Shown: piece after piece, positions 7,773-29,600 of the stretch
How the letters are laid out: the number at the start of each line of letters is the position of its first letter
Numbering within the stretch: position 1 is the stretch's first letter
Source of the DNA: Bacteroidales bacterium
GTDB taxonomy: Bacteria; Bacteroidota; Bacteroidia; Bacteroidales; P3
Direction of reading: 5' to 3'
Length of the DNA: 48,859 nt
Assembly (NCBI GenBank): GCA_017962545.1
Contig: JAGCVD010000020.1
Location: forward strand, 1 to 48,859
Program-made: the position numbers and the translations under genes
Notes under the pieces: generated by a model
Databases searched by the model: none
Told to the model about the DNA's origin: nothing
Seen by the model: the letters and a program-made list of their open reading frames with translations, nothing else

Positions 7773-7805
7773 ATCTTGTTTTTTTATAGTGTTTTTCTCT
7801 TTTTT

Positions 7806-7859
7806 AAGGTCCTTAAAGTCCTTAGGGTCTTTAGGGTCCTTAAGGTCTTTAGGGTTTTT
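7806..7859. repeat. 9-bp tandem array upstream of glutamine synthetase
   Basis: Six 9-bp units (AAGGTCCTT, AAAGTCCTT, AGGGTCTTT, AGGGTCCTT, AAGGTCTTT, AGGGTTTTT) lie 33 bp before the preferred start of the glutamine synthetase gene. They would sit in its 5' leader, or encode an N-terminal extension if the upstream ATG were used. They belong to the same family as the arrays at 6223-6258 and 20117-20161. Confidence 0.82.
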
Positions 7860-16307: not shown

Positions 16308-16400
16308 GATGTTTTGTTTTTGGTTAATAAAAAAGGTTATTTAACGTTGTTTTTTGTTTCTCTGTTTTTGCTCTCGTCTCTATACAATAATTCCAAAGTG

Positions 16401-16431
16401 CAAAGGTACTCTTTTTTTCCATTCCGACAAA
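16401..16431 (-). promoter_or_regulatory. Bacteroidota-type promoter of the giant T9SS protein gene
   Basis: On the minus strand a TTTG (16431-16428) lies 19 bp before TACCTTTG (16408-16401). This matches the known Bacteroidota primary-sigma consensus of a TTTG -33 box and a TAnnTTTG -7 box at that spacing. Transcription would start near 16393, giving a leader of about 86 nt before the ATG at 16307. Confidence 0.8.
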
Positions 16432-16693
16432 GTGTTTTTGAAAGTTTAACACTTTAAAATAAACCATCTGCTTGAACTGCAATATAATAACGATTGGCCC
16501 TCGGCACCATTCCGGCAGCGAAACCGACCGTTTTTTGAAAGAAAAACACTCCTCGCCCACCCCGAAAAGCACCCTCCGACCACCGTCCGTAACCGCCCCC
16601 TACCCTCACCCCGAACCGACTCCAAAAATGACCCAGATGACACTTTTCCGAAAACATCACAACCCACACTGAACGAATGGATTACACGGGGCA

Positions 16694-16720
16694 GGTCGGG
16701 CGAGGGTCGGGCGAGGGTCG
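16694..16720. repeat. 11-bp tandem repeat
   Basis: Two exact copies of GGTCGGGCGAG plus a partial third (GGTCG) lie in the intergenic region upstream of the aminopeptidase gene. Its role is unknown. Confidence 0.7.
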
Positions 16721-16815
16721 ATAGCAAATGGTATTAAACACCTGATTTTCAGTCTATCATAAGACGCTTTTTTGACTCAAAATCCGACCTTCGGAAGCTA
16801 TTTTTTGGCGCCGAC

Positions 16816-16847
16816 ATACTAAAATAATCCTGCCGGCGTTTTAGTAT
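16816..16847. promoter_or_regulatory. Inverted repeat in the leader of the aminopeptidase gene
   Basis: ATACTAAAA at 16816-16824 pairs with TTTTAGTAT at 16839-16847 around a 14-bp GC-rich centre, 29 bp before the ATG at 16876. It could be an operator or a leader hairpin. No T-run follows it on the plus strand, so it does not look like a standard terminator there. Confidence 0.4.
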
Positions 16848-16875
16848 TTATCGAAATAAATAAAAACACCACGAT

Positions 16876-18273
16876 ATGTTCAAAAAAGAGACCTACATCG
16901 CGCGCCGCGAGCAGCTGCGCAAGGACATCGGCCACGGCCTGATTATCATTCCCGGCAACCACGAGGCGCCCTGCAACTACAAGGACAACACCTACTGGTT
17001 CCGTCAGGACAGCACCTTCCTCTATTTCTTCGGCCTTCAGCGCGAGGATATGGTGGGCGTGCTCGACTGCGAGAGCGGCAAGGACTACATCTTCGCCAAC
17101 GACTACGATATCGACGACATCATCTGGACGGGCCCCCTGCCCTCGGTGAAGGAGCTGGCGGCCAGCGTGGGCGTGGAGAACACCGCCCCCCTGAAGACCC
17201 TTCGCGACATGATTTACGCCCTGCGGACGCCGACCTGCGACACTCCGATGCCGCTCTACCTGCCGCCCTACCGAGCCGACATCCGTGCCGACCTGGCCGA
17301 CCTGATAGGCCTGAAGTACTCGACGGTGGACCGTCACGCCTCGCAGGAGCTCATCCTGGCCTGCGTGAAGCAGCGCATGATCAAGAGCGCCGAGGAGATT
17401 GAGGAAATCGAGAAGGCCATCGCCACAGCCTATAACATGCATGTCGGCGCCATGAAGATGGCCATGCCGGGACGCTACGAGTACGAGCTGGCGGCCTTCA
17501 TGGAGGGCGAGGCCTGGAAGGGTAACGGCCCCGTGAGCTTCCCCGTCATCATGACCGTGCACGGCGAGACGCTGCACAACCACGGCCACAACAACCGCTT
17601 GGAGGTGGGCCGCATGCTGGTGATGGACGCCGGCTGCGAGACACCGATGAACTATTGCTCCGACATCACCCGCACCGTCCCCGTGGGCGGCCGTTTCGAC
17701 GAGCGCCAGAAGACCATCTACGAGATAGTGCTCAGCGCCCAGCTGGAGGCCGCCGCCGTCACAAGGCCGGGCATCACCTATAAGGAAGTGCACACCGCCG
17801 CCAGCCGCAAGCTGGCCGAGGGCTACAAGGGACTGGGCATCCTCAAGGGCTCGGTGGACGACATCGTGGCCGCCGGCGCCCACGCGCTGCTGATGCCCCA
17901 CGGCTTGGGTCACATGATGGGCCTCGACGTGCACGACATGGAGAACTACGGCCAGATCAACGTGGGCTACGACGAGGAGACGCGTCCCAGCGAGCAGTTC
18001 GGTCTGGGAAGCCTGCGCTGCGGCCGCAAGCTGCAGCCCGGCTTTGTCATCACCGACGAGCCCGGCTGCTACTTCATCCCCGCGCTGATAGACAAATGGC
18101 GCGCCGAGGGCACCTGCAAGGACTTCGTCAACTTCGACGAACTGGAGAAATGGAAAGACTTCGGCGGCATACGCATCGAGGACGACGTGCTCGTCACCGA
18201 GACGGGCAGCCGCATCCTCGGCAAGCCTATCCCCAAGACCGTCAAGGAGATTGAGGAGGTGATGGCACAGTAA
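16876..18273 (+). CDS. pepP: Xaa-Pro aminopeptidase (M24B family)
   Basis: This cytosolic metalloenzyme removes the N-terminal residue from peptides with proline in second position. The product has 465 residues. The N-terminal creatinase/AMP-N domain covers about 1-160 (IIPGNHEAPCNYKDNTYWFRQDS, FYFFGL-type block). The pita-bread catalytic domain follows, with the five expected metal ligands visible: D251 (VMDAGC), D263 (SDITRT), H346 (HGLGHMMG), E395 (TDEPG) and E435 (RIEDD). Length and ligands match E. coli PepP-like enzymes. It is followed by a palindromic element and then the nucleoside kinase gene on the same strand. Confidence 0.94.
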   Translation: MFKKETYIARREQLRKDIGHGLIIIPGNHEAPCNYKDNTYWFRQDSTFLYFFGLQREDMVGVLDCESGKDYIFANDYDIDDIIWTGPLPSVKELAASVGVENTAPLKTLRDMIYALRTPTCDTPMPLYLPPYRADIRADLADLIGLKYSTVDRHASQELILACVKQRMIKSAEEIEEIEKAIATAYNMHVGAMKMAMPGRYEYELAAFMEGEAWKGNGPVSFPVIMTVHGETLHNHGHNNRLEVGRMLVMDAGCETPMNYCSDITRTVPVGGRFDERQKTIYEIVLSAQLEAAAVTRPGITYKEVHTAASRKLAEGYKGLGILKGSVDDIVAAGAHALLMPHGLGHMMGLDVHDMENYGQINVGYDEETRPSEQFGLGSLRCGRKLQPGFVITDEPGCYFIPALIDKWRAEGTCKDFVNFDELEKWKDFGGIRIEDDVLVTETGSRILGKPIPKTVKEIEEVMAQ

Positions 18274-18275
18274 AA

Positions 18276-18413
18276 GGCCTCACCCCCTACCCCTCTCCTG
18301 TGAGGAGAGGGGAGTGAAATGAGAAAAGCAACTAGAACCCGTAAACAAAAAAAGCCCTCACCTCTAGCCATCTACTCCCCTCTCTTCTAAGGAGAGGGGC
18401 TGGGGGTGAGGCC
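18276..18413. repeat. REPIN-like palindromic element
   Basis: This 138-bp element fills the gap between the aminopeptidase and the nucleoside kinase. Its outer ends are perfect 12-bp inverted repeats (GGCCTCACCCCC at 18276-18287 and its complement at 18402-18413). Inside are two hairpins with nearly the same stem: CCCCTCTCCT/AGGAGAGGGG at 18290-18312, and CCCCTCTCTT/AGGAGAGGGG at 18377-18399. Two palindromes in inverted arrangement are the known layout of REPINs (paired REP sequences). The hairpins could also stop transcription from the upstream gene. Confidence 0.78.
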
Positions 18414-18421
18414 AAGATAAG

Positions 18422-20116
18422 ATGACCAATGTAGAGATTGTGCTCGCCAATACGGGCGAGCGGAAGTGGGTGCCGCAGGGCACGACGGTGGCCGCGCTGG
18501 CCGAAGAGTATACCAACGAATGCGTCGCCAAAGGCGAGCCGCTGCGCTGGCCCGTGCTGGGCGCCTTGGTGAACAACACGGTGAAGCCGCTGCAGTACCG
18601 CATATACAACCCCAAGGTGGTGAAGTTCATCGACATCAGCGACCGTCAGGGTTTCCGTCTCTACCGCAACGCGCTGGAGTTCATGCTCTACACCGCCGTG
18701 CACGACTGCTACCCCATGGCGGTACTCTCCATCGACCACTCGCTCCAGAACGGCTTCTACTGCCGCATCAAGAGCGCCGTCGAAGGCTTTGTGCTGCCAC
18801 CCAACGACGAGGTGTGCCGCACCGTGCGCGACCGCATGATAGCCCTCCAAGAGCAGGACATCCCCTTCATGGCCAAGACCATGCTGCTCAAGGACGCCAT
18901 CGAGCTCATACGCAACCGCCACATGCCCAAGACGCTCTACATCCTGGAGCACTTGAAGCAACTATATATAGAGATGAACTTCCTGGGCGACACGGTGCAC
19001 AAAATCAACGGCAAGCTGGCTCCCTCGACGGGTTGCATCACCACATGGGACTTCCGCCAGTACGGCGAAGAAGGCTATATGCTGCAATGCGCCGACCCCG
19101 AGCATCCCGACAAGTTGTCGCTCTACACCGAGACACCCAAGCTCTTCGCCATCTTCCGTGAGCACTACCAGTGGGCCGACCTGCTGCACACCTCGACGGT
19201 GAGCGACTACAACCGCATCGTGTACAACGGCGGCGGCCAGCAGCTGATACTGCTCGCCGAGGCGCTGCACGAGAAGAAATATGCCGAGATTGCCGAGCAG
19301 ATACGCCAGAGCGGCGCCCGCATGGTGCTGCTGGCCGGTCCCTCGAGTTCGGGCAAGACGACCTCATGCCGCCGTCTGAGCGTGCAGCTCTCGGTGCTGG
19401 GTTACGACGTCAACCAGCTGTCGCTCGACGACTACTTCATGTGCCGCGAACGTACCCCCAAGCTGCCCAACGGCGAGTACGACTTCGAGAGCGTCGACGC
19501 CCTCGACATACCGCTGCTCAACGAGAACTTGCAAGGGCTCTTCCGCGGCGAAGAGGTGAAGATACCCACCTTCGACTTCATCAAAGGCGAGCCCTCCTTC
19601 ACCGGCAAGACGCTGCAGTTGGGTCCGCGCAGCATCCTCGTGGTCGAGGGCATCCACGCCCTGAACCCCAAGCTGACGGCCGACATCGACGAGGCGCTGA
19701 AGTTCAAGGTCTACGTCAGCGCCCTCACGCAGCTCTCCATCGACGACCAGAATATCATCCACGGCACCGACAACCGATTGGTGCGCCGGCTGGTGCGCGA
19801 CAACAACTTCCGTGGCTGGGACGCCTACCAGACGCTGCACCGCTGGCCCGAGGTGGTGCGTGGCGAGCGTAAGCACATCTTCCCCTATCAGGAGAACGCC
19901 AACGTGATGTTCAACAGCGCGCTGCTCTACGAGCTGGGCGTGCTGAAGCGCTACGCCGAGCCGCTGCTGAAGCGGGTGCCCGAAGACTGTGAGGAATATT
20001 CGATAGCCCAGCAGTTGCTGGACTTCTCCGAGTTGCTGCTGCCCATCGACGACAAGTTCATCCCGCACAACAGCATCATGCGCGAATTCCTTGGTGGCAG
20101 CGCCTTTGAGTACTAG
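18422..20116 (+). CDS. Nucleoside (uridine-type) kinase with ThrRS-like N-terminal region
   Basis: The product has 564 residues. Residues 1-65 resemble a TGS domain (VPQGTTVAALAEEY), and about 70-230 resemble the second additional domain of threonyl-tRNA synthetase and related proteins. The C-terminal half is a P-loop kinase of the uridine kinase/phosphoribulokinase family: Walker A GPSSSGKTT at 306-314, LDDYFMCRERTPKLPNGEYDFES, and VVEGIHALN. Phosphorylation of uridine or a related nucleoside is expected from the family; substrate preference cannot be read from sequence. The fused architecture is known in Bacteroidota and Firmicutes. A 9-bp repeat array begins one base after its stop codon. 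Confidence 0.88.
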   Translation: MTNVEIVLANTGERKWVPQGTTVAALAEEYTNECVAKGEPLRWPVLGALVNNTVKPLQYRIYNPKVVKFIDISDRQGFRLYRNALEFMLYTAVHDCYPMAVLSIDHSLQNGFYCRIKSAVEGFVLPPNDEVCRTVRDRMIALQEQDIPFMAKTMLLKDAIELIRNRHMPKTLYILEHLKQLYIEMNFLGDTVHKINGKLAPSTGCITTWDFRQYGEEGYMLQCADPEHPDKLSLYTETPKLFAIFREHYQWADLLHTSTVSDYNRIVYNGGGQQLILLAEALHEKKYAEIAEQIRQSGARMVLLAGPSSSGKTTSCRRLSVQLSVLGYDVNQLSLDDYFMCRERTPKLPNGEYDFESVDALDIPLLNENLQGLFRGEEVKIPTFDFIKGEPSFTGKTLQLGPRSILVVEGIHALNPKLTADIDEALKFKVYVSALTQLSIDDQNIIHGTDNRLVRRLVRDNNFRGWDAYQTLHRWPEVVRGERKHIFPYQENANVMFNSALLYELGVLKRYAEPLLKRVPEDCEEYSIAQQLLDFSELLLPIDDKFIPHNSIMREFLGGSAFEY

Positions 20117-20161
20117 ACTTTAAGGTCCTTAAAGACCTTAGGGACCTTAAGGACTTTAAGG
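20117..20161. repeat. 9-bp tandem array between convergent genes
   Basis: Five 9-bp units (ACTTTAAGG, TCCTTAAAG, ACCTTAGGG, ACCTTAAGG, ACTTTAAGG) fill the whole gap between the nucleoside kinase stop and aroK, which converge here. The units are nearly self-complementary. The aroK stop codon (20156-20158) lies inside the last unit. Confidence 0.83.
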
Positions 20162-20632
20162 GAGGACGGGATTTTCTCCATCCAATATAATGGGAGCCTG
20201 CAGATAGATAGGCTCCCTCTCTTTTAGCTGTGCCGCGATACGGGCACGCATCTCGGGCTCGGGGAGGCCGTGCATGTAAGGGCGTGGGTTGCGGCTGCGC
20301 AAGGCGCGCTGCACAAGGGCTTCGACGGGCATCTGCAGATAGACGGCGGTGCCATGGGACAAGATGAAGTCCATGTTGCCGCTGTGACAAGGAGTGCCGC
20401 CGCCGGTGGCGATGACATAGTTGTCGAGGTCGGCGGTGGTATACAACATCTGGGTCTCGAGACGGCGGAAAGCCTCCTCGCCGAAGCGCTGGAAGAACAT
20501 CGGCACGGTGTAGTGATAACGCGCCTCGAAGGCGCGGTCGAGGTCGAGATACTCCATACCTTTCTCCTCCGCCAGCCGGCGACCGAAGGTGGTCTTGCCA
20601 CAGTACATATAACCCACGAGATAGTACTTCAT
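20156..20632 (-). CDS. aroK: Shikimate kinase, C-terminus replaced by repeat sequence
   Basis: The enzyme phosphorylates shikimate with ATP in aromatic amino acid synthesis. The 158-residue product has Walker A GYMYCGKTT (7-15), DLD (30-32), a shikimate-binding FRRLE near R57/R58, GGGT at 77-80 and a lid with RNPRP (114-118). The P-loop has the less usual Tyr-Cys in place of Gly-Ser. The protein is slightly short: after IILDGENP at 149-155 the usual last helix is missing, and the final residues and TAA come from the 9-bp array at 20117-20161. The catalytic residues are intact, so it may still work. On the 5' side an 8-bp array of S23 cassette A begins 2 bp before the ATG, so leader and tail are both repeat-derived. 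Confidence 0.9.
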   Translation of the reverse strand: MKYYLVGYMYCGKTTFGRRLAEEKGMEYLDLDRAFEARYHYTVPMFFQRFGEEAFRRLETQMLYTTADLDNYVIATGGGTPCHSGNMDFILSHGTAVYLQMPVEALVQRALRSRNPRPYMHGLPEPEMRARIAAQLKEREPIYLQAPIILDGENPVLP

Positions 20633-20634
20633 TT

Positions 20635-20670
20635 AGGAGATAAGGAGATAAGGAGATAAGGAGGTAAGAC
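20635..20670. repeat. Left 8-bp array of cassette A
   Basis: Four 8-bp units ending in TAAGAC lie directly upstream of aroK. On the minus strand they supply the purine-poor leader and the sequence just before the aroK ATG. Confidence 0.85.
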
Positions 20671-20690
20671 AAATGTTTATTGTTTGCATA

Positions 20691-21065
20691 TCAATCATCC
20701 CATTCCTTTCTGTTTTTCATCGTATTCATATATCCGTTCAAGACTCTGCTCGTCTCTTCTATTTCATCAATCATCCGATTGGCTTCATCTTCCGTGATAT
20801 AGTTAAAGTCATTGGCAAGGTAGATATAGCACCTGCACTCTTCCAAACTTCCTTGGGAGTAATTAAAGAAACGCACCTTATCCTCTCTTCCCAAACGTTT
20901 ATAACCCTCAGCAATATTTGCTGCAATAGATACCGCAGCACGTTTGAATTGCGATGACAGGCCGAATTTTTCTTCGTTTGGGAAAGCTTTTGTGATACGG
21001 TACACATGGTTAATGAACACCCGTGCTTTTTGCCAAGCAATTATATCCTCAAAACGTGTTGTCAT
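20691..21065 (-). CDS. Four-helix-bundle protein, S23/IVS-like (copy A)
   Basis: The product is 124 residues, mostly helical, with the family core FEDIIAWQKARVF near the start, SIAANIAEGYKR at about 46-57, and FNYSQGSLEEC at about 67-77. This is the family of proteins encoded in intervening sequences of some 23S rRNA genes, related in fold to the Avd accessory protein of diversity-generating retroelements. The molecular role of stand-alone copies is not established; nucleic acid binding is a common suggestion. By my alignment about 93 of 124 residues match copy B at 22851-23225. The gene is the only cargo of cassette A. No rRNA gene or reverse transcriptase is nearby. Confidence 0.88.
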   Translation of the reverse strand: MTTRFEDIIAWQKARVFINHVYRITKAFPNEEKFGLSSQFKRAAVSIAANIAEGYKRLGREDKVRFFNYSQGSLEECRCYIYLANDFNYITEDEANRMIDEIEETSRVLNGYMNTMKNRKEWDD

Positions 21066-21097
21066 CTATATAGTCTTAATTGGTATTAAATGGTATT

Positions 21098-21133
21098 GTC
21101 TTATCTCCTTATCTCCTTTCCTCCTTATCTCCT
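21098..21133. repeat. Right 8-bp array of cassette A
   Basis: GTCT followed by four 8-bp units (three TATCTCCT, one TTCCTCCT), the inverted counterpart of 20635-20670. The first base of the recN stop codon (21133-21135 read on the minus strand) lies in the last unit. Confidence 0.85.
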
Positions 21134-22788
21134 CATAAAGACATCAACTCTTTGGCGGTTTGGAGGGCGGCGGCGGTGGGCGGGTCGCTACTGAGCATCG
21201 TGGCAACCTCGACGACACGGCTGTCGGCGTCGAGCTCACGGAGACGCGACACAGTGCGGTCGGCGTCGTTCTCTTTGTAGACCTTGACGTGTTGCGCAGC
21301 ACGGGCGGCAATCTGCGGCAGATGGGTGATGGCGACGACCTGCATGGTCTCCGCCATGCGGCTCATGATACGTCCCACGGCGACGCTGATGTCGCCGCTG
21401 ACGCCGCTGTCAATCTCGTCGAAGATGACCGTAGGCAGCAAGGTACGGCTGGTGAGCATGCTCTTGATGGCGAGCATCAGACGCGACAACTCGCCGCCGG
21501 AAGCCACATCGGCGACATCGCGCAGCGTGCCGCCACGGTTGGCGTCGAAGAGGAAGCGCACAGCGTCGTGGCCCGTGGCGCCGTAGGTCGCCGTGGGCGT
21601 CAGTTCGACAGAGAAACGCGCTTCGGGCATACCCAGTTCGTGGAGTATGGGCAGGATATTCTTCGACAGCAGTTTGCAGGCCTTGTCACGCGTCTTGGTG
21701 AGCACCGCAGCGGCGGATTGCAGGGCGGCGAAGGCCGCGTCGACAGCTTCCATCTGTTCTTTGATACGTTCGTCGAGGGAGGCGATGCCCTGCAGGCGCT
21801 CGTCGAGACTGTCACGGAGTGTTATAAGAGCCTCTACTGTGTCGACGCCATGTTTCTTCTCCAAGCGGTAGAGCATCGCCAGACGGTCGTCGACCTGCTG
21901 CTGCCGCTCGGGGCTATAACTGATGGCGGTTGCCGCATGCTGGAGCTCACCATTGACGTCGTCGAGCTCAATGAGGGTGGTGTCGAGACGCGAGAGTAGC
22001 TCCTCTGCTGCGGGATGATAGGCGGCGATATGCGTCAGGGCTGCCTTTGCCTGCCGCAGACGAGGGAGGACGGCACCCTCGCTGTCGTCGTCGAGAGCCG
22101 CCGACGCCGTAGCCAAGCCCTCTCGGATGGCTTCGGCGTGAGCCAATAGCTGCTGTTCCTGTTCCAGCGTCTCCTGTTCGTCGGCCACAAGATGGGCGGC
22201 TGCGAGTTCGTCATACTGGAACTGCAGATAGTCCTGCTCCTTGCGGTTCTGCGCTTCGGTTGTAGTAAGTTCCTCGAGCTGCCGTTTGAGGGTGCTGTAG
22301 GTGCCATAGGCTTCACCGTAGGCTTGCGATGCCTTTTGAGCCCCGAGGGTGTCGAGCAGCGAGAGACGGAAATGGCTGTCGGCAAGGGTGAGGGTCTGGT
22401 GCTGTGAATGTATGTCGACAAGGCGGCTGCCGAGGGTCTTGAGGAAGGCAAGCTGCACGGGGGTGTCGTTGGCGAAGGCGCGGCTCTTGGCGGAGGGTAG
22501 TATCTCGCGCCGCAGGATGAGGCGGTCGTCATAATCCACGTCAGCCTCGGTGAAGATCCCTTCGAGGCCCAATCCGGCGACATCGAACTGCGCCTCGACG
22601 ATGCACTTGCGGCCTTTGTCGGCCAGTACGGCCGTGTCGGCCCTCTGTCCCAACAGCAGCCCCAAGGCGCCGAGGAGTATGCTTTTGCCAGCACCCGTCT
22701 CACCCGTAATGGCCGTGAAGCCTGTCCCGAAACGGATGTCCGTCTCACGGATGAGCGCGTAGTTTTCGATATGTAATGTTTGAAGCAT
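21133..22788 (-). CDS. recN: DNA repair protein RecN
   Basis: RecN is an SMC-like ATPase acting in recombinational repair of double-strand breaks. The 551-residue product shows Walker A TGETGAGKS (28-36), a central coiled-coil region rich in Gln, Glu and Ala (about 155-370), and a C-terminal ABC half with GGTLRDVADVASGGELSRLMLAIK (signature) and VIFDEIDSGVSGD (Walker B, D-loop), then VVAITHLPQIAA. Length matches the family. It is flanked on both sides by the two S23 cassettes, whose arrays touch its start region (8 bp away) and overlap its stop codon. Confidence 0.95.
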   Translation of the reverse strand: MLQTLHIENYALIRETDIRFGTGFTAITGETGAGKSILLGALGLLLGQRADTAVLADKGRKCIVEAQFDVAGLGLEGIFTEADVDYDDRLILRREILPSAKSRAFANDTPVQLAFLKTLGSRLVDIHSQHQTLTLADSHFRLSLLDTLGAQKASQAYGEAYGTYSTLKRQLEELTTTEAQNRKEQDYLQFQYDELAAAHLVADEQETLEQEQQLLAHAEAIREGLATASAALDDDSEGAVLPRLRQAKAALTHIAAYHPAAEELLSRLDTTLIELDDVNGELQHAATAISYSPERQQQVDDRLAMLYRLEKKHGVDTVEALITLRDSLDERLQGIASLDERIKEQMEAVDAAFAALQSAAAVLTKTRDKACKLLSKNILPILHELGMPEARFSVELTPTATYGATGHDAVRFLFDANRGGTLRDVADVASGGELSRLMLAIKSMLTSRTLLPTVIFDEIDSGVSGDISVAVGRIMSRMAETMQVVAITHLPQIAARAAQHVKVYKENDADRTVSRLRELDADSRVVEVATMLSSDPPTAAALQTAKELMSL

Positions 22789-22795
22789 TGCTTAT

Positions 22796-22832
22796 AAGTA
22801 GTTAAGTAGATAAGGAGTTAAGTAGTTAAGAC
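22796..22832. repeat. Left 8-bp array of cassette B
   Basis: Four 8-bp units of the type AAGTAGTT ending in AAGAC, 8 bp upstream of the recN ATG. One unit (AAGGAGTT) is intermediate between the unit types of cassettes A and B. Confidence 0.84.
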
Positions 22833-22850
22833 AAATGTATCTTTCTCTGC

Positions 22851-23225
22851 TTAATCATCCCAATTCTGCTTGTTCTTAATTGCGATAATATAACTGTTCA
22901 GTATCTTGCTGGTCTCCTCAATTTCGACTATCATTTGATTGGCTTCCTCCGTAGAAATGTAGTTGAAGTCCATTGAGAGATATATGTAGCATCGGCACTC
23001 TTCCAAACTCCCTTGCGAGTAGTTGTAGAAACGTAGTTTGTCATCTTTCCCCATCCGTTTATACCCCTCGGCGATGTTGGCGGCTATCGACACGGCAGCA
23101 CGTTGAAACTGGGATGTTAGTCCGTATTTTTCCTCTGATGGGAATTCCATCGTTGCTCGATACACATGGTTGATAAACACACGCGCTTTCTGCCATGCAA
23201 TAACATCTTCAAAACGTACCGTCAT
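22851..23225 (-). CDS. Four-helix-bundle protein, S23/IVS-like (copy B)
   Basis: The 124-residue paralogue of copy A is the same length, with the conserved blocks FEDVIAWQKARVFINHVYR, SIAANIAEGYKR and YSQGSLEECRCYIYL. Most substitutions against copy A are conservative (Ile/Val, Lys/Arg, Phe/Tyr, Ser/Thr), and both copies end in WDD. That suggests both have been kept under selection rather than decaying. Function is unknown for stand-alone members of the family. It is the sole gene of cassette B, between recN and sufS. Confidence 0.88.
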   Translation of the reverse strand: MTVRFEDVIAWQKARVFINHVYRATMEFPSEEKYGLTSQFQRAAVSIAANIAEGYKRMGKDDKLRFYNYSQGSLEECRCYIYLSMDFNYISTEEANQMIVEIEETSKILNSYIIAIKNKQNWDD

Positions 23226-23245
23226 ATTATGATATGTTTTGTATC

Positions 23246-23284
23246 GTCTTAACTACTTAACTACTGTCTCCTTAACTACTTAAG
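23246..23284. repeat. Right 8-bp array of cassette B
   Basis: GTCT followed by TAACTACT units and one 7-bp unit, inverted relative to 22796-22832. The sufS TAG stop (23276-23278) and its last Lys codon lie inside this array. Confidence 0.84.
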
Positions 23285-24484
23285 AAGCACCATTATCTTC
23301 TCCAAAGCTGCTATGAACGCGTCTACCTCGTCTTTCGTGTTATACACGGCAAAGCTAGCACGGACGGTGCCGGGAATACCATAGCGGTCCATAACGGGCT
23401 GGGTGCAATGATGACCTGTGCGCACAGCGACACCCAGCTGGTCGAGCAGCGTACCCACGTCGTAGGGATGCGCGTCATCCACGAGGAACGACAGCACGGC
23501 GGCCTTCTGCAAGACCGGCAGCGTGCCGAAGATACGTATGCCGTCAAGTTTCATCAGCTGCTGGGTAGCATAAGCGAGTAGGTCGCTCTCGTGGGCGGCA
23601 ATATTGTCAACACCCAATTCCTGCATGAAGTCGATGGCCTTACCCAAGCCCAGCACGTCGCCTACAGAGGGTGTGCCAGCCTCGAACTTGAAGGGCAGGT
23701 GGTTGTAGGTGGTACGCTCGAAGGTGACATCTTCTATCATCTCTCCCCCACCCTGATAGGGCGGCAGTTCGTCGAGCATCTCCTGACAACCGTACATCAC
23801 ACCGACGCCCATAGGACCATACATTTTGTGTCCCGAGAAGCAGTAGAAGTCACATCCCAGCGCCTGCACGTCGACCTTGAGGTGTGCGACAGCCTGGGCG
23901 CCGTCGATGAGGACAGGCACGCCATGGGCGTGGGCGATATCGATAATCTCCTTGATAGGATTGATGGTGCCAAGGGTATTGCTGACATGCGTCACGGCGA
24001 CGAGACGCGTCTTCTCGTTGAAGAGAGGCTCGTAGGCAGAGAGCATGAGGGCTCCGTCGTCGCTGAAAGGTATGGGTCGCAACTTGGCGCCGGCAAGCTG
24101 CCATGGAACGATGTTGCTGTGGTGCTCCATGCCAGAGACGATGACCTCATCATCGCCGGTGAAGTAACGGCGGGCAAAGCTGGAGGCCACAAGATTGATG
24201 CTCTCGGTCGTGCCGCGAGTGAAGACGACCTCCTCGTGACTACGGGCGCCGATGAACTGCTGCACCTGCCGGCGCACGGCCTCGTAACGTTCGGTGGCTT
24301 CGGCAGCCAGGTGGTGGGCACCGCGGTGGATATTGGCGTTGAGGTGGGCATAGTAGTCCGTCAGCGTGTCGATGACACACTGTGGCTTCTGTGTCGTTGC
24401 GGCGTTGTCGAGATACACCAGCTGGTGGCCATGCACCTCGGTATCCAGAATAGGGAACTGAGCGCGGATGTTATCAATTATCAT
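23276..24484 (-). CDS. sufS: Cysteine desulfurase, SufS type
   Basis: This PLP enzyme takes sulfur from cysteine for iron-sulfur cluster assembly. The product is 402 residues. Visible features: YLDNAATTQKP at 24-34, HHSN at 121-124 for cofactor stacking, DGAQAVAH at 194-201, the PLP lysine K220 in SGHKMYG, and the catalytic C360 in RTGHHCTQP, typical of class II (SufS) enzymes. The other suf genes are not next to it in this window. Its start overlaps the end of the DedA-family gene by 11 bp, so the two are probably cotranscribed. Its last codon and stop are in the right array of S23 cassette B. Confidence 0.94.
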   Translation of the reverse strand: MIIDNIRAQFPILDTEVHGHQLVYLDNAATTQKPQCVIDTLTDYYAHLNANIHRGAHHLAAEATERYEAVRRQVQQFIGARSHEEVVFTRGTTESINLVASSFARRYFTGDDEVIVSGMEHHSNIVPWQLAGAKLRPIPFSDDGALMLSAYEPLFNEKTRLVAVTHVSNTLGTINPIKEIIDIAHAHGVPVLIDGAQAVAHLKVDVQALGCDFYCFSGHKMYGPMGVGVMYGCQEMLDELPPYQGGGEMIEDVTFERTTYNHLPFKFEAGTPSVGDVLGLGKAIDFMQELGVDNIAAHESDLLAYATQQLMKLDGIRIFGTLPVLQKAAVLSFLVDDAHPYDVGTLLDQLGVAVRTGHHCTQPVMDRYGIPGTVRASFAVYNTKDEVDAFIAALEKIMVLLK

Positions 24485-25232
24485 GTTGCTTGTTTTTCTT
24501 CACAATTGCTCTAATTATCAAGAAGGCCACCACTGCGACAAAAACGACGATGATAATCCAGCTGAGTTGCTGGCTGTATTTCTCTATCACCGAGGGATCG
24601 GCGGCGCGGTAGGCCAGGTAGCCCAGCAGGGCGAGGATACAGTTCCACACCAGGGCACCGAGGGTAGTGAAAAGCATGAAGGCGCCGAGGTTCATCTTCG
24701 AGAGACCTGCGGGTATGCTGATAAGCTGACGTATGACGGGGATAAAGCGTCCCACGAGGGTGGACACGACACCATGATCGTTGAAGTAAACCTCTGCCCG
24801 CTGCACTTTCTCTTTGGAGAGTTGGAGTAGATGGCCCAACTTGCTCTCGGCGAAGGCATAGACAATGGGGCGGCCAAGCCACATGGAGAGAAAGTAGTTG
24901 ACAAGGGCTCCCAACAGGGCTCCCAGGGTACCGAAGAGCACCACGAGCCATATCTTCATGCCGCCTTGGCTCTCAGGATTGGCGGCGACATACACGGCTG
25001 GCGGGATGACCACCTCGGAAGGGAACGGGATGAAGGAGCTCTCGAGCGTCATCAGCCCGCCCACAGCGAGGTAGTTCATGTGGGCGTCGTACCAATGCAG
25101 CACCGAAGCCACCCAGCCGCTACGGTTGGTGTCGACCGCTTCGGCGATATTGGTGGTCTCCTGGGCTTGGGCTATTGGCTGCGCCAACATAAGAAGGGCG
25201 GCCAGCAAGAAGAAGAATCTTTTAAAGTTCAT
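24474..25232 (-). CDS. DedA-family membrane protein
   Basis: The 252-residue inner-membrane protein carries the DedA core: ESSFIPFPSEVVIPPA at about 63-78 and GRFIPVIRQLISIPAGLSKM at about 162-181. The family has been linked to flipping or transport of lipids such as undecaprenyl phosphate and phosphatidylethanolamine. The first 23 residues look like a cleavable signal peptide (ending AQAQ), and a periplasmic stretch precedes the core; such an N-terminal extension is less usual for the family. The last 30 residues are a membrane segment and a basic tail. It sits between the TPR gene (15-bp gap) and sufS (11-bp overlap). Confidence 0.88.
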   Translation of the reverse strand: MNFKRFFFLLAALLMLAQPIAQAQETTNIAEAVDTNRSGWVASVLHWYDAHMNYLAVGGLMTLESSFIPFPSEVVIPPAVYVAANPESQGGMKIWLVVLFGTLGALLGALVNYFLSMWLGRPIVYAFAESKLGHLLQLSKEKVQRAEVYFNDHGVVSTLVGRFIPVIRQLISIPAGLSKMNLGAFMLFTTLGALVWNCILALLGYLAYRAADPSVIEKYSQQLSWIIIVVFVAVVAFLIIRAIVKKNKQHDN

Positions 25233-25247
25233 ATCGACAGGTATTTT

Positions 25248-26636
25248 TTATTCAACAGGAGGTATCAGCAGCGAGAAATGTGGGTTAATCATTATCTCGG
25301 GACATATCTCGGCCAACATAGACGGCAGAACATCGGGCAACACCCGACTGGCTCGGTTGTAACGGTTGGTGTAGAAATATGCTGCCGCGAGGTAGGTGCT
25401 GTAGAAAGCATCATGGGGATAGAGTTCGAGCGATTCCTCGCCGAAGTCAATGAGAGTATCGTAAATCTTGGCATTGTAGAGGAACATCACATAGCGTTGG
25501 CACATAATCTCGGTGCAGCCGTCTGTTTCGAGCACCCGCTCGTAATAGTCTCTGGCGGCCTCGACATTCTCAATTCCCTCGTAGAGCAATGCCGCCGAGA
25601 AGAGCACCTCGGCGCTGTCAGGAGCCAAACGAAGGGCTTTGCGGAGGTAAGGCATGGCCACATTCACGCTGTCGCCGGTAGCATAAGCCAACGCCAGTGA
25701 GGCAAGGGCATAGGCGTCGTCGGGGTTTTCTTCGACAGCCTTGCGGAAGTAGACCATTGCCATGTCGACATTCTCGGCACGCATATAGATGGTGGCCACC
25801 AGACGGTAGAGCATGGAACGGTTGTCCGCATAGTCGCGGGCCCGCAGCAACGTGGCGACAGCCTCGGTGGGCTTCCCCATATACTCCTGCGTGGCGGCGA
25901 GGTCGTTGTAGACGGTAAAGCGGCTCTTGTCAATGGCGATGGCGTACTCGTAGGCATCGACAGCCTTCTCAAAAAGCCCCATCTCACGGTAGGCGTTACC
26001 AAGACAATGCCAAGCCTCACAACTATATGGATGTTCCTCGACGAAAGACTTGAGGTAGGTCACCGTGTCGTCCATCATGTTGGCCAGAATCGCCGTGTCT
26101 AGGTAATTGTAGAGTGTCGCCGGGTCGTAGCTGTCGGTATCGAGGGCCAGTTTATAATAGCGTATGGCTTCCTCGAAGTTGTGCATGTGGTAGTATTCCT
26201 CTGCGATGTTGGCATAGACCCGTCCCAGCATCCATCCGTCGTCGGCTGCCTCAAGGTAGAGTTTGACAGCCTTCTCATGCTCACCCATGGCCCCATAGGC
26301 CACACCGAGCGAGTAGGCCACGTCGGTGTTGTCGGGCTCCTGGCGGCGCAACTCCTTGATGAGACGCAAAGCCGGCTCGAACTGTTCTCTGGCTATCATC
26401 AGGTGAGCACGGCGCAACTTCACGATGGTGCTGTCGGGGTAGAGCTGCTCGGCATACTCGACAGCCCGCTCCAGCGGCGCTATATCGTTCACTTCGAAAT
26501 AATAATCCATGATAACCTCCAGCTCGTCGACGTCAAAGAACCGGTGGTCTCCTTGAAGCACCGTATTCTCGAAGTCGAGCACCAGCTGGCGTTCTTCCTC
26601 GTCAAAATCGAAATCTCTGAATCTATCTTTATCCAT
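25248..26636 (-). CDS. Tetratricopeptide repeat protein
   Basis: The 462-residue product is almost entirely TPR helices: repeats can be followed from about residue 55 to 430, for example AYSLGVAYGAMGEHEKAVKLY and AWHCLGNAYREMGLFEKAVDAYEYAI. There is no signal peptide. The N-terminus is acidic (DFDFDEEERQ). TPR proteins are scaffolds for protein contacts; the partner is not evident. It lies 18 bp after sprA and 15 bp before the DedA gene on the same strand, so an operon with sprA is plausible. Confidence 0.85.
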   Translation of the reverse strand: MDKDRFRDFDFDEEERQLVLDFENTVLQGDHRFFDVDELEVIMDYYFEVNDIAPLERAVEYAEQLYPDSTIVKLRRAHLMIAREQFEPALRLIKELRRQEPDNTDVAYSLGVAYGAMGEHEKAVKLYLEAADDGWMLGRVYANIAEEYYHMHNFEEAIRYYKLALDTDSYDPATLYNYLDTAILANMMDDTVTYLKSFVEEHPYSCEAWHCLGNAYREMGLFEKAVDAYEYAIAIDKSRFTVYNDLAATQEYMGKPTEAVATLLRARDYADNRSMLYRLVATIYMRAENVDMAMVYFRKAVEENPDDAYALASLALAYATGDSVNVAMPYLRKALRLAPDSAEVLFSAALLYEGIENVEAARDYYERVLETDGCTEIMCQRYVMFLYNAKIYDTLIDFGEESLELYPHDAFYSTYLAAAYFYTNRYNRASRVLPDVLPSMLAEICPEIMINPHFSLLIPPVE

Positions 26637-26654
26637 TGTCTTAAGTAGCTTGTT

Positions 26655-29600
26655 TTAGAAAGAGAACCTCACCATCAAGCCACCCTTGGTGGTCGAGTTG
26701 GGGTAAGTGTTCATGATATAGGGGTTGTTTATGTTAGTCTGGAAGAAAAGTTTGAGGGCGAGGTTGTTGGTTAGAGAATACTCGGCGCTGAGGTCGACCA
26801 TCCACATCTCACTACCCGACGATATCTGGCTCTGGTTCTGGTTAATCTTGCGGATGTTGGTCATATTGCTGTTATAGGTGAGGTTGAACTGCAGGACAAC
26901 ATCGCTCTTGAGGTCATGCTGCTTGCCAGCGAACTGCACAGAGAATGCCACATCCTTGATATGGTAGCCGGCACCCACGGTGACGCCGTCGCGGGTGGTC
27001 TCTGTCAGCTGATTGTTGGAGAAGGAGAGCTGCAGGGTGCGCTGTTTCTGGATGGAGAAGTTGAACTGTAGACTGTTGACCATGCTAACCGACACGCGTA
27101 TCAAGGGGTTCATCTGTTCTGTAATCTGCACTCCGTCGGCGCTGACAGGGGCAATGTAGTCGCCCGTGCTGTTAAGGGCTGTCTCGAGGCCATAGTCGTA
27201 GTCTTCGAGCGCCGACAGTGCCGGGTCGGTATAGAAATGGCCCACGGTATAGGTGGCGCTGTACTTGTGCGTGAACGAGATATTGGTGAACCACTTCTTG
27301 AGGGCCTGCACCTTATTCAGGCCGTTGTAGGTGATATTCCAGTTGGGCAGCGGCAAGCCAAGGAAGGGAGAGAAACTGTGGCTGGCGACGTCTTTGCCGA
27401 GGTAGGTAGCCAGGAAAGAGGTTAGCAGGACCGTCTGCGAGTTGCCGCTGTAACCTGCGGGATAGTAGTTCCCGTTCATCGTGTCAAGCACCATCTGGTC
27501 GGTATAGGGGTCGGGGTTGGCATCAGCCAGCCGCTGGGCCACGATACTACGGTTGTCAAGGAACTGCTGGAAGAGTTCGTCCTTGTTGGCGAAAGCCGTG
27601 CGGAACGCCCAGACGGTAGTGGAGTAGTTGCCGCTCATCACATAGGAGAGCGGTCCCGTGACGGCATCGACGTCGGACATATACTTGTAGTAGTACTCCT
27701 CACGTGAGGTGTAGTTCTGCGAAGCGTTGACGGTTATATTCATGTCACGTAGCGGCTCCAATTGTACATTCTGTAACGAGAGCGTCCTGTTGGTAGTCAT
27801 CTCGTGGGGAGTGTTGAAAAGTGTGTCACGACTGAGGAGGTCGTAACTCAGCAACTCGTCGACCACATCTTGTTGATAGCCCAACACGTAACCCAGCCCG
27901 GGAGTCCAGTAATGCTGTGGATCGAGTCCCACATACTGAGGCTCGCCCATATAGCCTGGCAGACGGGAGCCCTGAACGACATTGTACTGGATGTTGAAAC
28001 TCTTCACACACGTCACCAGACGCAAAGCCGCAAACCCGATATTCTTGAACGTCTGCATAGTCTTTTCGCGACGCAGGCTGTCGGCCATAGCGATGGAGTC
28101 CTGCTGACTCATCGGCTTCTTGGCCTCGGGTTTCTTGGGGCCACGCGACGGGGTGGTGCGCTTGTTGTTATTATTGTTGGCCCATGCCTTCTTCAATAGA
28201 GGTATCTTGTTGTACAGCGTCGTCATGGTAGCTTGAGCCGTTGCCTGCATGATAGTGGTGCTCTGCAGTATAGAGCCCATGGAAGCCAACGCCTGAGTGG
28301 TGCCTTGGTGGTTGAATTCGGTATTGTAGGTCAACGGCACACGCAAGAAGTCCATATAAGGCAGCTTGTTGACGGGCAGCTCGTAGGTGACAGTTATCGT
28401 CTGCTTGAAGTTCTGCATCGTGCCGCCGTCGGCGATAGACTGCCACACCGAGTCCATGGCCGTGCGGCTCTCCAGACGCCCTATCGGCTCATCAATACGG
28501 GCATTGGCGTTGGCGCTGTACTGGAAGTGCAGTGACTTGGAGAGGTCGTACTGCAACCCGTAATCGCGCTGCCAGGTGAACTGCTTGTAGTACGTGGGGC
28601 GGATGATGACGAGGGCAGCACTCTTGTTGCGCAACAATGTCTCTTCAAAGTCACGGTACACCCGGGTGGTAAAGGTCAAGTTCTTGGGCAGGTAGTAGAA
28701 ATTAATGTCGTTGATGATTTTCCAATTCTTCCCTTTGAATATCTTTGACTTCTCGAAGGGCTTCACCAGAGTGGGCTGCAAAGCATAATTATAGGTGAGG
28801 CTACCCGTGTGCTGGTCTTTGTTGTAGTGGTCTATGTCTTCGTCCGACGAACGCTCGCGGCTGTATGCGTATGAGAGCGAGAAGTTTTCTATGTCATAGA
28901 TATGTTGCTTAAGACTTCCCGCACCCGTCCTGTTCTTATGCACATTGGAGAACGTGAGGTTGGTGGCTGTCTTGCGGCGCTGCGTCATCTGTGCCACGCT
29001 GTCGCGCTCGGCAGCCGTCTGGAAGGTCTGCAGGTCGTCGTATAACAGCACGTCAGGGTTGTAAGGGTTGTATTCCGGACTGCCTATCTCGCGATTGTAG
29101 TCAAGGTAGAGAGGCACGTGCAGACCCCAGTCCTCGGGAAGGAACTTACCCAGCTCCATATCGAAGGTCGTCTGGAAGTTGAATGTGTTTATCAGTTCCT
29201 CCTTGATGAGGGGGTCTTCCAGATTGCCGAAGTTGGAGGTGGTGTAGGAGCCATACAACTGCAGGTTACCCACGTCGGCCAAGTTGGTGCGCGCCAAAGC
29301 CATAGCCGCCCAACCTCCCTTGTTGATATAATCCGACAGGCGCAACTCGTTCACCCACACAATGGCCGACTTGGGAAGCATGTTGTTGCCATCCAACAGC
29401 GTCTCTTTCTTGGGGTTGCGCACACCTATCATGATGACTTTTATCTTGCCGAGGTTAGGCGTGCCGAGCACTGTGTATTTCTTACCCCCGACATGCTCGG
29501 AGTAAAGCAATGTGGGCGAATAGCCACTCTCGCCGGAACGTATATGTGTATTGCGGCGGGTCTTTATCTCGGTCATCAGCTGAAGGTCGATGTCGACATT

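What the first reader, a model, noticed from the sequence alone, without database searches (positions are those of the whole stretch)
20635..23284. Two S23 four-helix-bundle cassettes with inverted 8-bp arrays bracket recN
Each cassette is about 490-500 bp, holds one 124-residue S23-type gene (about three-quarters identical between copies), and is bounded by four 8-bp units on each side in inverted orientation. The innermost bases (TAAGACAAATGT and GTCTTA) are shared between the copies while the outer units differ (AGGAGATA versus AAGTAGTT). This is seen directly. Such symmetric design around a single small gene, repeated on both sides of one host gene, suggests a small non-autonomous mobile or domesticated element in which the S23 protein recognises the repeat arrays. 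S23 proteins are known from rRNA intervening sequences and are related to Avd; a repeat-bound stand-alone cassette is, to my knowledge, not well described.
Basis: partly seen in the sequence, partly recalled or inferred. Interest (0 to 1): 0.8.

Follow-up and report, generated by a model that had tools for sequence, protein, structure and literature searches.

The report
Tiny mobile S23 element at junctions
The two copies beside recN belong to a widespread family of very small mobile elements, each made only of one S23 gene between two mirror-image sets of 7-9-letter repeats, and this offers an origin for unexplained short repeats scattered between genes in Bacteroidota and cyanobacteria.

Summary
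Two S23 genes (PF05635, 124 aa, 75% identical) lie at 20691-21065 and 22851-23225, each between arms of about four 8-bp units in inverted orientation, on both sides of recN.

It is general. Inverted arms flank 140 of 159 distinct Bacteroidota S23 genes (direct repeats: 16 of 159), 13 of 13 plasmid S23 genes scored, but 4 of 240 ordinary genes. A divergent single-copy S23 paralogue has none (0 of 19).

It moves as a unit. None of 29 genus relatives examined has S23 beside recN; in seven, recN and aroK overlap. Cyanobacterial plasmids about 98% identical in the flanks differ by a 428-bp insertion holding gene and both arms, with a 5-bp duplication (GTAAT). S23-less palindromes, single arms and tandem arms are scattered over the genome.

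Best reading: an intervening-sequence-like element living outside rRNA, between genes of operons; its transcript folds into a long hairpin that S23 probably binds. How it is copied is unknown: no reverse transcriptase or Y1 transposase was found in the (81% complete) host genome. 'Bracketing recN' is two independent insertions.

The parts
20635..21133 (-). Element A (499 bp): arm - S23 gene - inverted arm, between recN and aroK
   Evidence: clean empty recN/aroK junction (4-bp overlap) in 7 of the 20 relatives with aroK downstream
20691..21065 (-). S23 (23S_rRNA_IVP, four-helix-bundle) gene of element A, 124 aa
   Evidence: solved relatives 2gsc and 2rld
21096..21133 (-). 5' arm of element A, units GGAGATAA, inner end AAGACAATA; abuts the recN stop codon
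20635..20676 (-). 3' arm of element A, inner end ACATTTGTCTTA, units inverted to the 5' arm; ends just before the aroK ATG
22794..23283 (-). Element B (about 490 bp): arm - S23 gene - inverted arm, between sufS and recN
   Evidence: no S23 beside recN in 29 of 29 genus relatives examined; S23 at the sufS-recN junction in L068, L074, L075
22851..23225 (-). S23 gene of element B, 124 aa, 75% identical to A
23246..23283 (-). 5' arm of element B, units GTAGTTAA with one break; the sufS stop codon lies in it
22794..22838 (-). 3' arm of element B, inner end ACATTTGTCTTA, units inverted to the 5' arm
21133..22788 (-). recN, the host gene between the two insertions
   Evidence: matches in 56 of 59 genus genomes; name by recall from the sequence
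20156..20632 (-). aroK (shikimate kinase-like), gene downstream of element A
   Evidence: synteny; name by recall from the sequence
23276..24484 (-). sufS (cysteine desulfurase-like), gene upstream of element B
   Evidence: synteny; name by recall from the sequence

Best explanation
Each cassette is one small mobile element of about 420-500 bp whose only protein is S23 and whose ends are the two inverted arrays. It inserts at gene junctions, mostly inside operons and in the sense of transcription, as a rule without breaking the neighbours. In the operon transcript the two arms pair into a long hairpin around the S23 reading frame, as in the S23-encoding intervening sequences (IVS) of 23S rRNA; the S23 pentamer most likely binds this hairpin or its units and is needed for copying. 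Internal deletion leaves short S23-less palindromes, single arms and tandem arms. SHOWN: architecture, joint presence or absence of gene and arms, empty sites, decay, unit type following the S23 subfamily. INFERRED: hairpin formation in the cell, S23 binding, S23 role in copying, origin of solo arms. UNKNOWN: the enzyme that cuts and joins.
For: Inverted arms in 140 of 159 distinct S23 genes versus direct 16 of 159 with the last 45 nt of the CDS included (129 and 11 without); 240 control genes 4 and 9 either way; divergent S23 paralogue 0 of 19; plasmid copies 13 of 13 scored. Flanks pair better with their own partner than with other loci's: own partner best of 99 in 22 of 100 cases, top 5% in 52 of 100. 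Anchored arms: 70% complementary within an element, 42% between elements of different sites; a changed base is compensated in 66% of cases, null mean 32%, maximum 46% (30 elements, 6 site clusters). Copies at different sites align over the gene plus about 45-60 bp on each side and stop there, e.g. L095/L109, L109/L122, L102/L109. Filled versus empty plasmid sites: 428-bp insertion containing both arrays, 5-bp duplication GTAAT, flanks 97.5-98% identical; a truncated copy at the same site (L288, by eye). Mantel r 0.61 between S23 identity and arm k-mers over 7604 pairs at different sites, 500 permutations at most 0.15. RNA folds z -6.9 and -5.7 with paired arms. S23-less palindromes in the host genome.
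Against: S23 proteins have a median net charge of 0 (161 proteins), not what one expects of a simple nucleic-acid binder. Only one site has a clean target duplication and one an imperfect one; the other filled/empty pairs show none that can be read, and in L232 the insertion seems to have cut off the last codons of the upstream gene. No pair of copies at plainly different sites above 85% DNA identity in the Bacteroidota set, and the 85% pair (L106/L128) stops at the 3' end of the gene instead of running through the 3' arm, so no recent jump was seen there. In the broad phylum sample only 18 of 30 pass the arm threshold. In the recN-close subclade the link between close S23 genes and S23-less arrays is not significant (p 0.10; G025 has 33 array hits without a close S23). 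Two plasmid copies (L230, L299) lie antisense to both neighbours, so sense orientation is not obligatory. In Coxiella the IVS-borne S23 is thought not to be made (PMC4990558, passages).
Confidence: 0.72

Rival explanations
1. S23 is an ordinary operon gene with an autoregulatory leader and trailer: the arrays are its own regulatory sites (RNA or operator), inherited with it, and the scattered presence is gene gain and loss by recombination, not transposition.
For: Sense orientation in 118 of 119 cases where both neighbours agree (63 of 76 for ordinary gene triples); arms next to start and stop codons; S23-less single arms lie before genes (by eye).
Against: Many unrelated junctions (55 site clusters for 128 cassettes), precise empty sites with a 5-bp duplication at one, S23-less palindromes with the same ends at many places of the host genome.
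Confidence: 0.13
2. Palindromic elements (MITE-like) moved in trans by a host transposase or reverse transcriptase; S23 is a passenger that stabilises or protects the transcript. (Overlaps with the best explanation in all but the role of S23.)
For: S23-less short palindromes, tandem and solo arms, as in REP/REPIN systems (PMC3116915, passages); a 5-bp duplication is usual for staggered cuts (recalled).
Against: No shared partner among the two families tested: RVT_1 in 22 of 59 genus genomes and not in G000, G002 (18 S23 places) or G023; Y1_Tnp in 38 of 59 and not in G000. Arm units follow the S23 subfamily, and arms differ between S23 types within one genome. DDE transposases were not searched.
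Confidence: 0.3
3. The arrays are a separate class of expanding intergenic repeats (replication slippage, snap-back copying) and S23 genes only happen to land in or next to them.
For: Arrays without S23 exist in the window and genome; 9 of 240 control genes have direct repeats at the same threshold.
Against: The empty plasmid sites read have no arrays; inverted, not direct, symmetry about S23; own-arm matching.
Confidence: 0.03
4. S23 genes in cas operons and elsewhere are functional partners of the genes they sit beside (for example CRISPR-associated).
For: 18 such genes reported in cas loci (PMC3936711, passages).
Against: The cmr2-S23-cmr3 copy (L229) carries inverted arms with the unit GGAGATAA of element A, and PCC 7002 lacks it at the same junction; junctions of recN, aroK, ribonucleotide reductase and conjugation genes are used as well.
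Confidence: 0.03

Closest known systems
S23-encoding intervening sequence (IVS) of 23S rRNA (Coxiella, Leptospira and others)
   Same: One S23 ORF, total length about 430 nt in Coxiella, terminal inverted repeats that fold into one long hairpin, scattered distribution; the Coxiella IVS even has tandem heptamers before the S23 start (PMC4990558, passages). S23 ORFs are also scattered in 16S and 23S rRNA insertions of CPR bacteria (PMC11270868, passages).
   Different: Here between protein genes of operons, not in rRNA; ends are arrays of short units on both sides; several copies of different unit type per genome; S23-less derivatives. RNase III excision untested.
REP/REPIN elements with RAYT transposases
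   Same: A protein gene near repeats that also occur alone as inverted doublets, singlets and tandem clusters (PMC3116915, passages).
   Different: The gene is S23, not a Y1 tyrosine transposase; the repeats are arrays of 7-9-bp units, not one REP palindrome; no Y1_Tnp found in the host genome.
Short tandemly repeated repetitive (STRR) heptamers of cyanobacteria and TAACTGA arrays of Beggiatoaceae, cyanobacteria and Bacteroidetes
   Same: Intergenic arrays of 7-bp units; STRR can form hairpins and have no known function; TAACTGA arrays often stand just before start codons (PMC2670836 and PMC4679880, passages).
   Different: The passages seen do not link them to S23 (S23 is not mentioned in PMC4679880); here the arrays are the ends of an S23 element. 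That they share an origin is my proposal.
Diversity-generating retroelement protein Avd
   Same: Related family: bAvd-like PF22296 E 1.3e-10 (above cut-off for element A, below for B), DivGenRetAVD E 1.1e-10 (below its cut-off); resemblance also noted in PMC10053308 (passages).
   Different: No reverse transcriptase found in the host genome; no template or variable repeat was looked for.
BrickBuilt MITE of Porphyromonas gingivalis
   Same: Intergenic tandem-repeat MITE in Bacteroidales (PMC4596501, abstract and outline).
   Different: 23-bp unit; the abstract names no protein gene inside the element.

Membership tests
23S rRNA intervening sequence (IVS) | Lies inside an rRNA gene | tested here: not met
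   Flanked by recN, aroK, sufS; no Rfam hit at gathering score in window 15000-27000
23S rRNA intervening sequence (IVS) | Encodes an S23 (23S_rRNA_IVP) protein (some IVS) | tested here: met
23S rRNA intervening sequence (IVS) | Terminal inverted repeats forming one long stem | tested here: met
   (predicted fold only)
23S rRNA intervening sequence (IVS) | Excised from the transcript by RNase III | not testable with these tools
   needs RNA data
REPIN/RAYT system | Y1 tyrosine transposase associated with its repeats | tested here: not met
   only S23 between the arms; no Y1_Tnp hit in G000, an 81% complete genome
MITE | Terminal inverted repeats | tested here: met
MITE | Target-site duplication | tested here: inconclusive
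   clean 5 bp at one plasmid site, imperfect at a second, unreadable at the others
MITE | No coding sequence | tested here: not met
   full elements encode S23; only the S23-less derivatives would qualify
Diversity-generating retroelement (Avd) | Reverse transcriptase in the system | tested here: not met
   no RVT_1 in G000, 81% complete
STRR heptamer arrays | Intergenic tandem arrays of 7-bp units in cyanobacteria | tested here: met
   by eye for the arms of plasmid copies L226, L231, L233, L299; the window arms have 8-bp units and are not cyanobacterial
S23 / four helix bundle family (PF05635, TIGR02436) | Match above the curated cut-off | tested here: met
   129.1 and 125.3 bits, cut-off 33.8; 121.7 and 116.1, cut-off 24

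The most novel reading that the evidence does not exclude
A previously unrecognised class of mobile element in which a non-enzymatic S23 pentamer, bound to a hairpin of repeated 7-9-bp units in an operon transcript or in single-stranded DNA, drives its own spread; the S23-IVS of 23S rRNA are its rRNA-resident branch, and the STRR, TAACTGA and similar heptamer arrays known since about 1990 (date recalled) are its S23-less remains.
Probability: 0.3. Interest if true: 0.92.

Novelty: new variant of a known kind. Interest (0 to 1): 0.8.

Why it matters
S23 proteins are common (147 of 198 Bacteroidota genomes sampled) and are described as having no known function (PMC4990558, passage). If the reading holds, they mark one of the smallest self-contained bacterial mobile elements, explain S23 genes reported in CRISPR operons as insertions, and give a testable origin for short-unit intergenic arrays whose function is still described as unknown. 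It also presents a relative of Avd, an accessory protein of retroelements, in a genome in which no reverse transcriptase was found.

Tried and rejected
Arrays as pre-existing insertion targets: rejected by the plasmid empty sites, which have no arrays.

A partner enzyme kept in all S23 genomes: RVT_1 and Y1_Tnp both fail. DDE transposases, serine and tyrosine recombinases and homing endonucleases were not searched.

Phage carriage: no match in 50,697 phage records and none confirmed in viral contigs. Promoter and terminator scan of 20000-23600: fewer than shuffles give. Rfam: none at gathering score. A pattern for the 9-bp arrays of the window gave 0 hits in the own genome; it does not match the window arrays themselves exactly, so it says little.

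Orientation: the first automatic call (118 ++, 21 +-, 10 -+, 1 -- of 150) includes antisense-ORF mispicks, for example L001 itself. The strict call over 163 genes gives 54 ambiguous on both sides, 32 ++, 54 with + on one side and the other ambiguous, 3 +-, 1 with - on one side, 19 at contig ends, 0 --. I use orientation only as support.

Rows dropped: of 183 S23 hits by my own profile, genes outside 90-160 aa and identical genes were dropped (163 left), and 4 more for short flanks (159). The first flank statistic used 100 of 115 genes. The anchored pairing test kept 30 of 128 cassettes, those with a clear inner motif on both sides. One of the 20 paralogue loci had too short a flank (19 scored). 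Of the 28 plasmid records with an S23 match I scored S23 genes from 13. The sets are not random samples: they are the best or nearest S23 hits, and many share a site (128 cassettes in 55 site clusters, the largest with 28).
Full report
WHAT IS THERE. The window carries two cassettes on the minus strand, 20635-21133 and 22794-23283. Each has one 124-aa S23 gene between two arrays of 8-bp units that are near reverse complements of each other. The proteins are members of PF05635 and TIGR02436 well above cut-off, with a weaker match to the Avd family, and have two solved relatives, 2gsc and 2rld, each with five chains listed; a homopentamer is reported for the Xanthomonas S23 protein (PMC4990558 passage). 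The inverted match between flanks scores 34 and 31; 500 dinucleotide shuffles reach 17 and 18 at most. Units differ between the copies (GGAGATAA and GTAGTTAA), while inner ends (AAGAC......CATTTGTCTT) are shared.

IT IS GENERAL. PF05635 matches in 58 of 59 genomes of the genus, 1 to 18 places each, and in 147 of 198 genomes of the phylum at E 1e-10. I read the flanks of 163 distinct S23 genes from the genus and from public genomes, nearly all Bacteroidota by title. With flanks up to 170 bp plus the last 45 nt of the gene, 140 of 159 have an inverted match of score 18 or more and 16 of 159 a direct one; without those 45 nt it is 129 and 11. Among 240 ordinary genes of the same loci 4 and 9 pass, with or without the 45 nt. 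A divergent S23 paralogue of about 150 aa, seen about once per genome, is a natural control: 0 of 19, highest score 11, or 12 with the 45 nt. In a broad phylum sample 18 of 30 pass, 2 of 30 for direct. Thirteen S23 genes on plasmids, twelve cyanobacterial and one of Riemerella, all pass with 18 to 34, direct 8 to 13 (scores in 69 and 120).

THE ARMS BELONG TOGETHER. The left flank matches its own right flank better than those of other loci: own partner best in 22 of 100, in the top 5% in 52 of 100. In 30 elements from 6 site clusters that could be anchored on the inner motif, 70% of positions pair within an element and 42% between elements of different sites; sliding by one base drops it to 37% or less; when a base differs between two elements the partner compensates in 66% of cases, against 32% (maximum 46%) when right arms are shuffled. 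So arms change together. Predicted RNA folds of both cassettes pair the two arms, z -6.9 and -5.7.

THE ARMS BELONG TO THE S23. Over 7604 pairs of cassettes at different sites, S23 protein identity and arm composition correlate with r 0.61; 500 permutations reach 0.15 at most. Across phyla the trend can be seen by eye: a Dyadobacter copy (L135) and a Picosynechococcus copy (L229, 51% identical to element A) have units of the same kind, the latter GGAGATAA itself, whereas other S23 subfamilies of the same genus carry quite other units (TTAGACT, AGTGGTC, GTTTACC). Joint descent of gene and arms explains this as well as recognition does.

IT COMES AND GOES. Of the 56 genus genomes with recN I examined the recN loci of 29 relatives, 1.5 kb on each side: no S23 gene in any; 20 of them keep aroK downstream and in 7 recN and aroK overlap by 4 bp, a clean empty site. 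Some keep what looks like a single right arm without S23 (L039, L042, L054, by eye). Three other genomes (L068, L074, L075) have an S23 gene between sufS and recN, the site of element B, and only 27-38 bp between recN and aroK. Cassettes at different sites align over the gene and about 45-60 bp on each side and no further, for example L095 and L109 at 82.5%; L106 and L128 (85%) share the 5' arm only.

PRECISE INSERTIONS. Cyanobacterial plasmids give the sharpest picture. In Trichormus and Scytonema plasmids (L228, L227) the element sits in a row of genes that leads to a TrbI/VirB10 gene. Three plasmids read at that junction (L285, L286, L287), 97.5-98% identical over the match, lack exactly 428 bp: both arrays, the S23 gene, and one copy of GTAAT, which stands on both sides of the element and once in the empty site. 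L288 has the same site with a truncated S23 (by eye). In a Nostoc plasmid (L296) another S23 element split a TAATG stop/start overlap, so that both genes keep their ends; the repeat there is TAATG and TTATG (by eye). Further filled and empty pairs (L226 with L295-L298, L231 with L292-L293, L232 with L289-L291, L229 with L294, L299 with L303) show joint absence of arms and gene but no readable duplication; in L232 the last codons of the upstream gene seem lost. In L233 against L302 the matching flanks are 99.4% identical, but the empty allele carries a different insertion.

S23-LESS FORMS. A 15-letter pattern for the unit of element B occurs 39 times in the own genome (0 for the reversed control) and in 22 of 59 genus genomes. 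In the own genome two hits are in element B and the other 37 lie at 21 places; I read 20 of the 21. Seven are short palindromes of two inverted arms (five by script, 34-47 bp from core to core; L213 and L222 by eye), two are tandem arms (seven and three left-arm cores), and eleven I class as single arms, of which L215 and L220 may keep traces of a second arm. Some end in GACAA-ATG where the ATG looks by eye like the start of a gene. Genomes with an S23 at least 50% identical to element A's over most of its length have the pattern in 13 of 17 cases, others in 9 of 42 (Fisher p 0.0002), but within the recN-close subclade (13 and 6 genomes) the difference is not significant (p 0.10), and G019 and G025, both about 81-82% complete, have many arrays without such an S23.

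ORIENTATION. Where both neighbours agree in strand, S23 agrees with them in 118 of 119 cases; ordinary genes do in 63 of 76. A strict call that sets aside ambiguous neighbours gives 32 ++, 3 +- and no --. Two plasmid copies, L230 and L299, are antisense to both neighbours. Sense orientation is thus a strong preference, not a rule; selection for expression from the operon or against antisense transcripts would be enough.

HOW IT PROBABLY WORKS. The closest known thing is the S23-encoding IVS of 23S rRNA: 428 nt in Coxiella, terminal inverted repeats forming one stem, an S23 ORF in the loop, excised by RNase III, with tandem heptamers before the ORF (PMC4990558, passages). I read the present element as the same design placed in operon transcripts instead of rRNA, with array ends. 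S23 binding to the paired arms is the simplest reason for the matching of unit type and S23 type, but the median net charge of 0 is a warning, and the Coxiella authors think their S23 is not made. What cuts and joins DNA is unknown. No reverse transcriptase was found in the own genome (81% complete), in G002 with 18 S23 places or in G023 (both 98% complete); no Y1 transposase in the own genome.

WHAT IS IN PRINT. Searches listed no paper that, by title and abstract start, describes S23 genes between inverted short-unit arrays. Only the open-licence PMC library was searched, and the longer result lists were capped (for example 20 of 1,775, 15 of 1,103). I opened twelve papers by passages or outline. 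One reports 18 23S_rRNA_IVP genes in cas loci, including one between Cmr3 and Cmr2 genes (PMC3936711), under functions associated with CRISPR-Cas; the S23 gene at the like junction in L229, absent from PCC 7002, suggests mobile insertions instead. STRR of cyanobacteria are called of unknown function (PMC2670836), and TAACTGA arrays before start codons were proposed to act in translation (PMC4679880).

VERDICT. The finding is real, general and more interesting than its recN setting suggests. The element is a new variant of the S23 intervening sequence, outside rRNA, with array ends and short derivatives. Whether it is a new kind of mobile element driven by S23 itself is open.

Noticed in passing
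window 7804-7859 and 20116-20161: Arrays of 9-bp units (TTAAGGTCC, GACCTTAAG) with no S23 gene, at gene ends; by eye they resemble the right-hand units of another S23 copy in the genome (L004).
   Followed up: partly
window 18274-18421: The pepP-udk-like junction holds inverted CTCACCCCC...GAGAGGGG repeats here, while relatives L068 and L075 have an S23 element between the same two genes, and L070 and L072 one before the udk-like gene.
   Followed up: partly
L210, L211, L213, L217, L219, L222; also L021, L079: A small GC-rich hairpin (TATCGCTTCGCTCGCCCTGCGGGCAG and variants) is nested inside the arrays, recalling the small dispersed repeats found inside heptamer arrays of Nostoc (recalled).
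   Followed up: no
L214 and L225 (own genome C24:4100-5000, C39:15000-15800): Seven and three tandem left-arm cores, mostly about 49 and 54 bp apart: whole arms can also multiply in tandem.
   Followed up: partly
L006 (own genome C27:54618-57839): A weak S23-family match in a 263-aa frame with many CTAGC-type units on both sides, some inside the reading frame.
   Followed up: no
L005 and L265-L284: A divergent S23 paralogue of about 150 aa (189-aa frame in L005), seen about once per genome and with no arrays; probably a settled, non-mobile family member.
   Followed up: partly
L233 (Anabaena sp. 90 plasmid) and L302: The cas6-cas4 junction holds an S23 element with a very long heptamer array in one plasmid and a different inverted-repeat insertion (AGGTTGGGTT...AACCCAACCT) in the other.
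   Followed up: partly
L043, between recN and aroK: A left arm of AGTGA-type units joined over about 35 bp to a right arm of TTAACTTC type: an S23-less element with arms of two different types (by eye).
   Followed up: no
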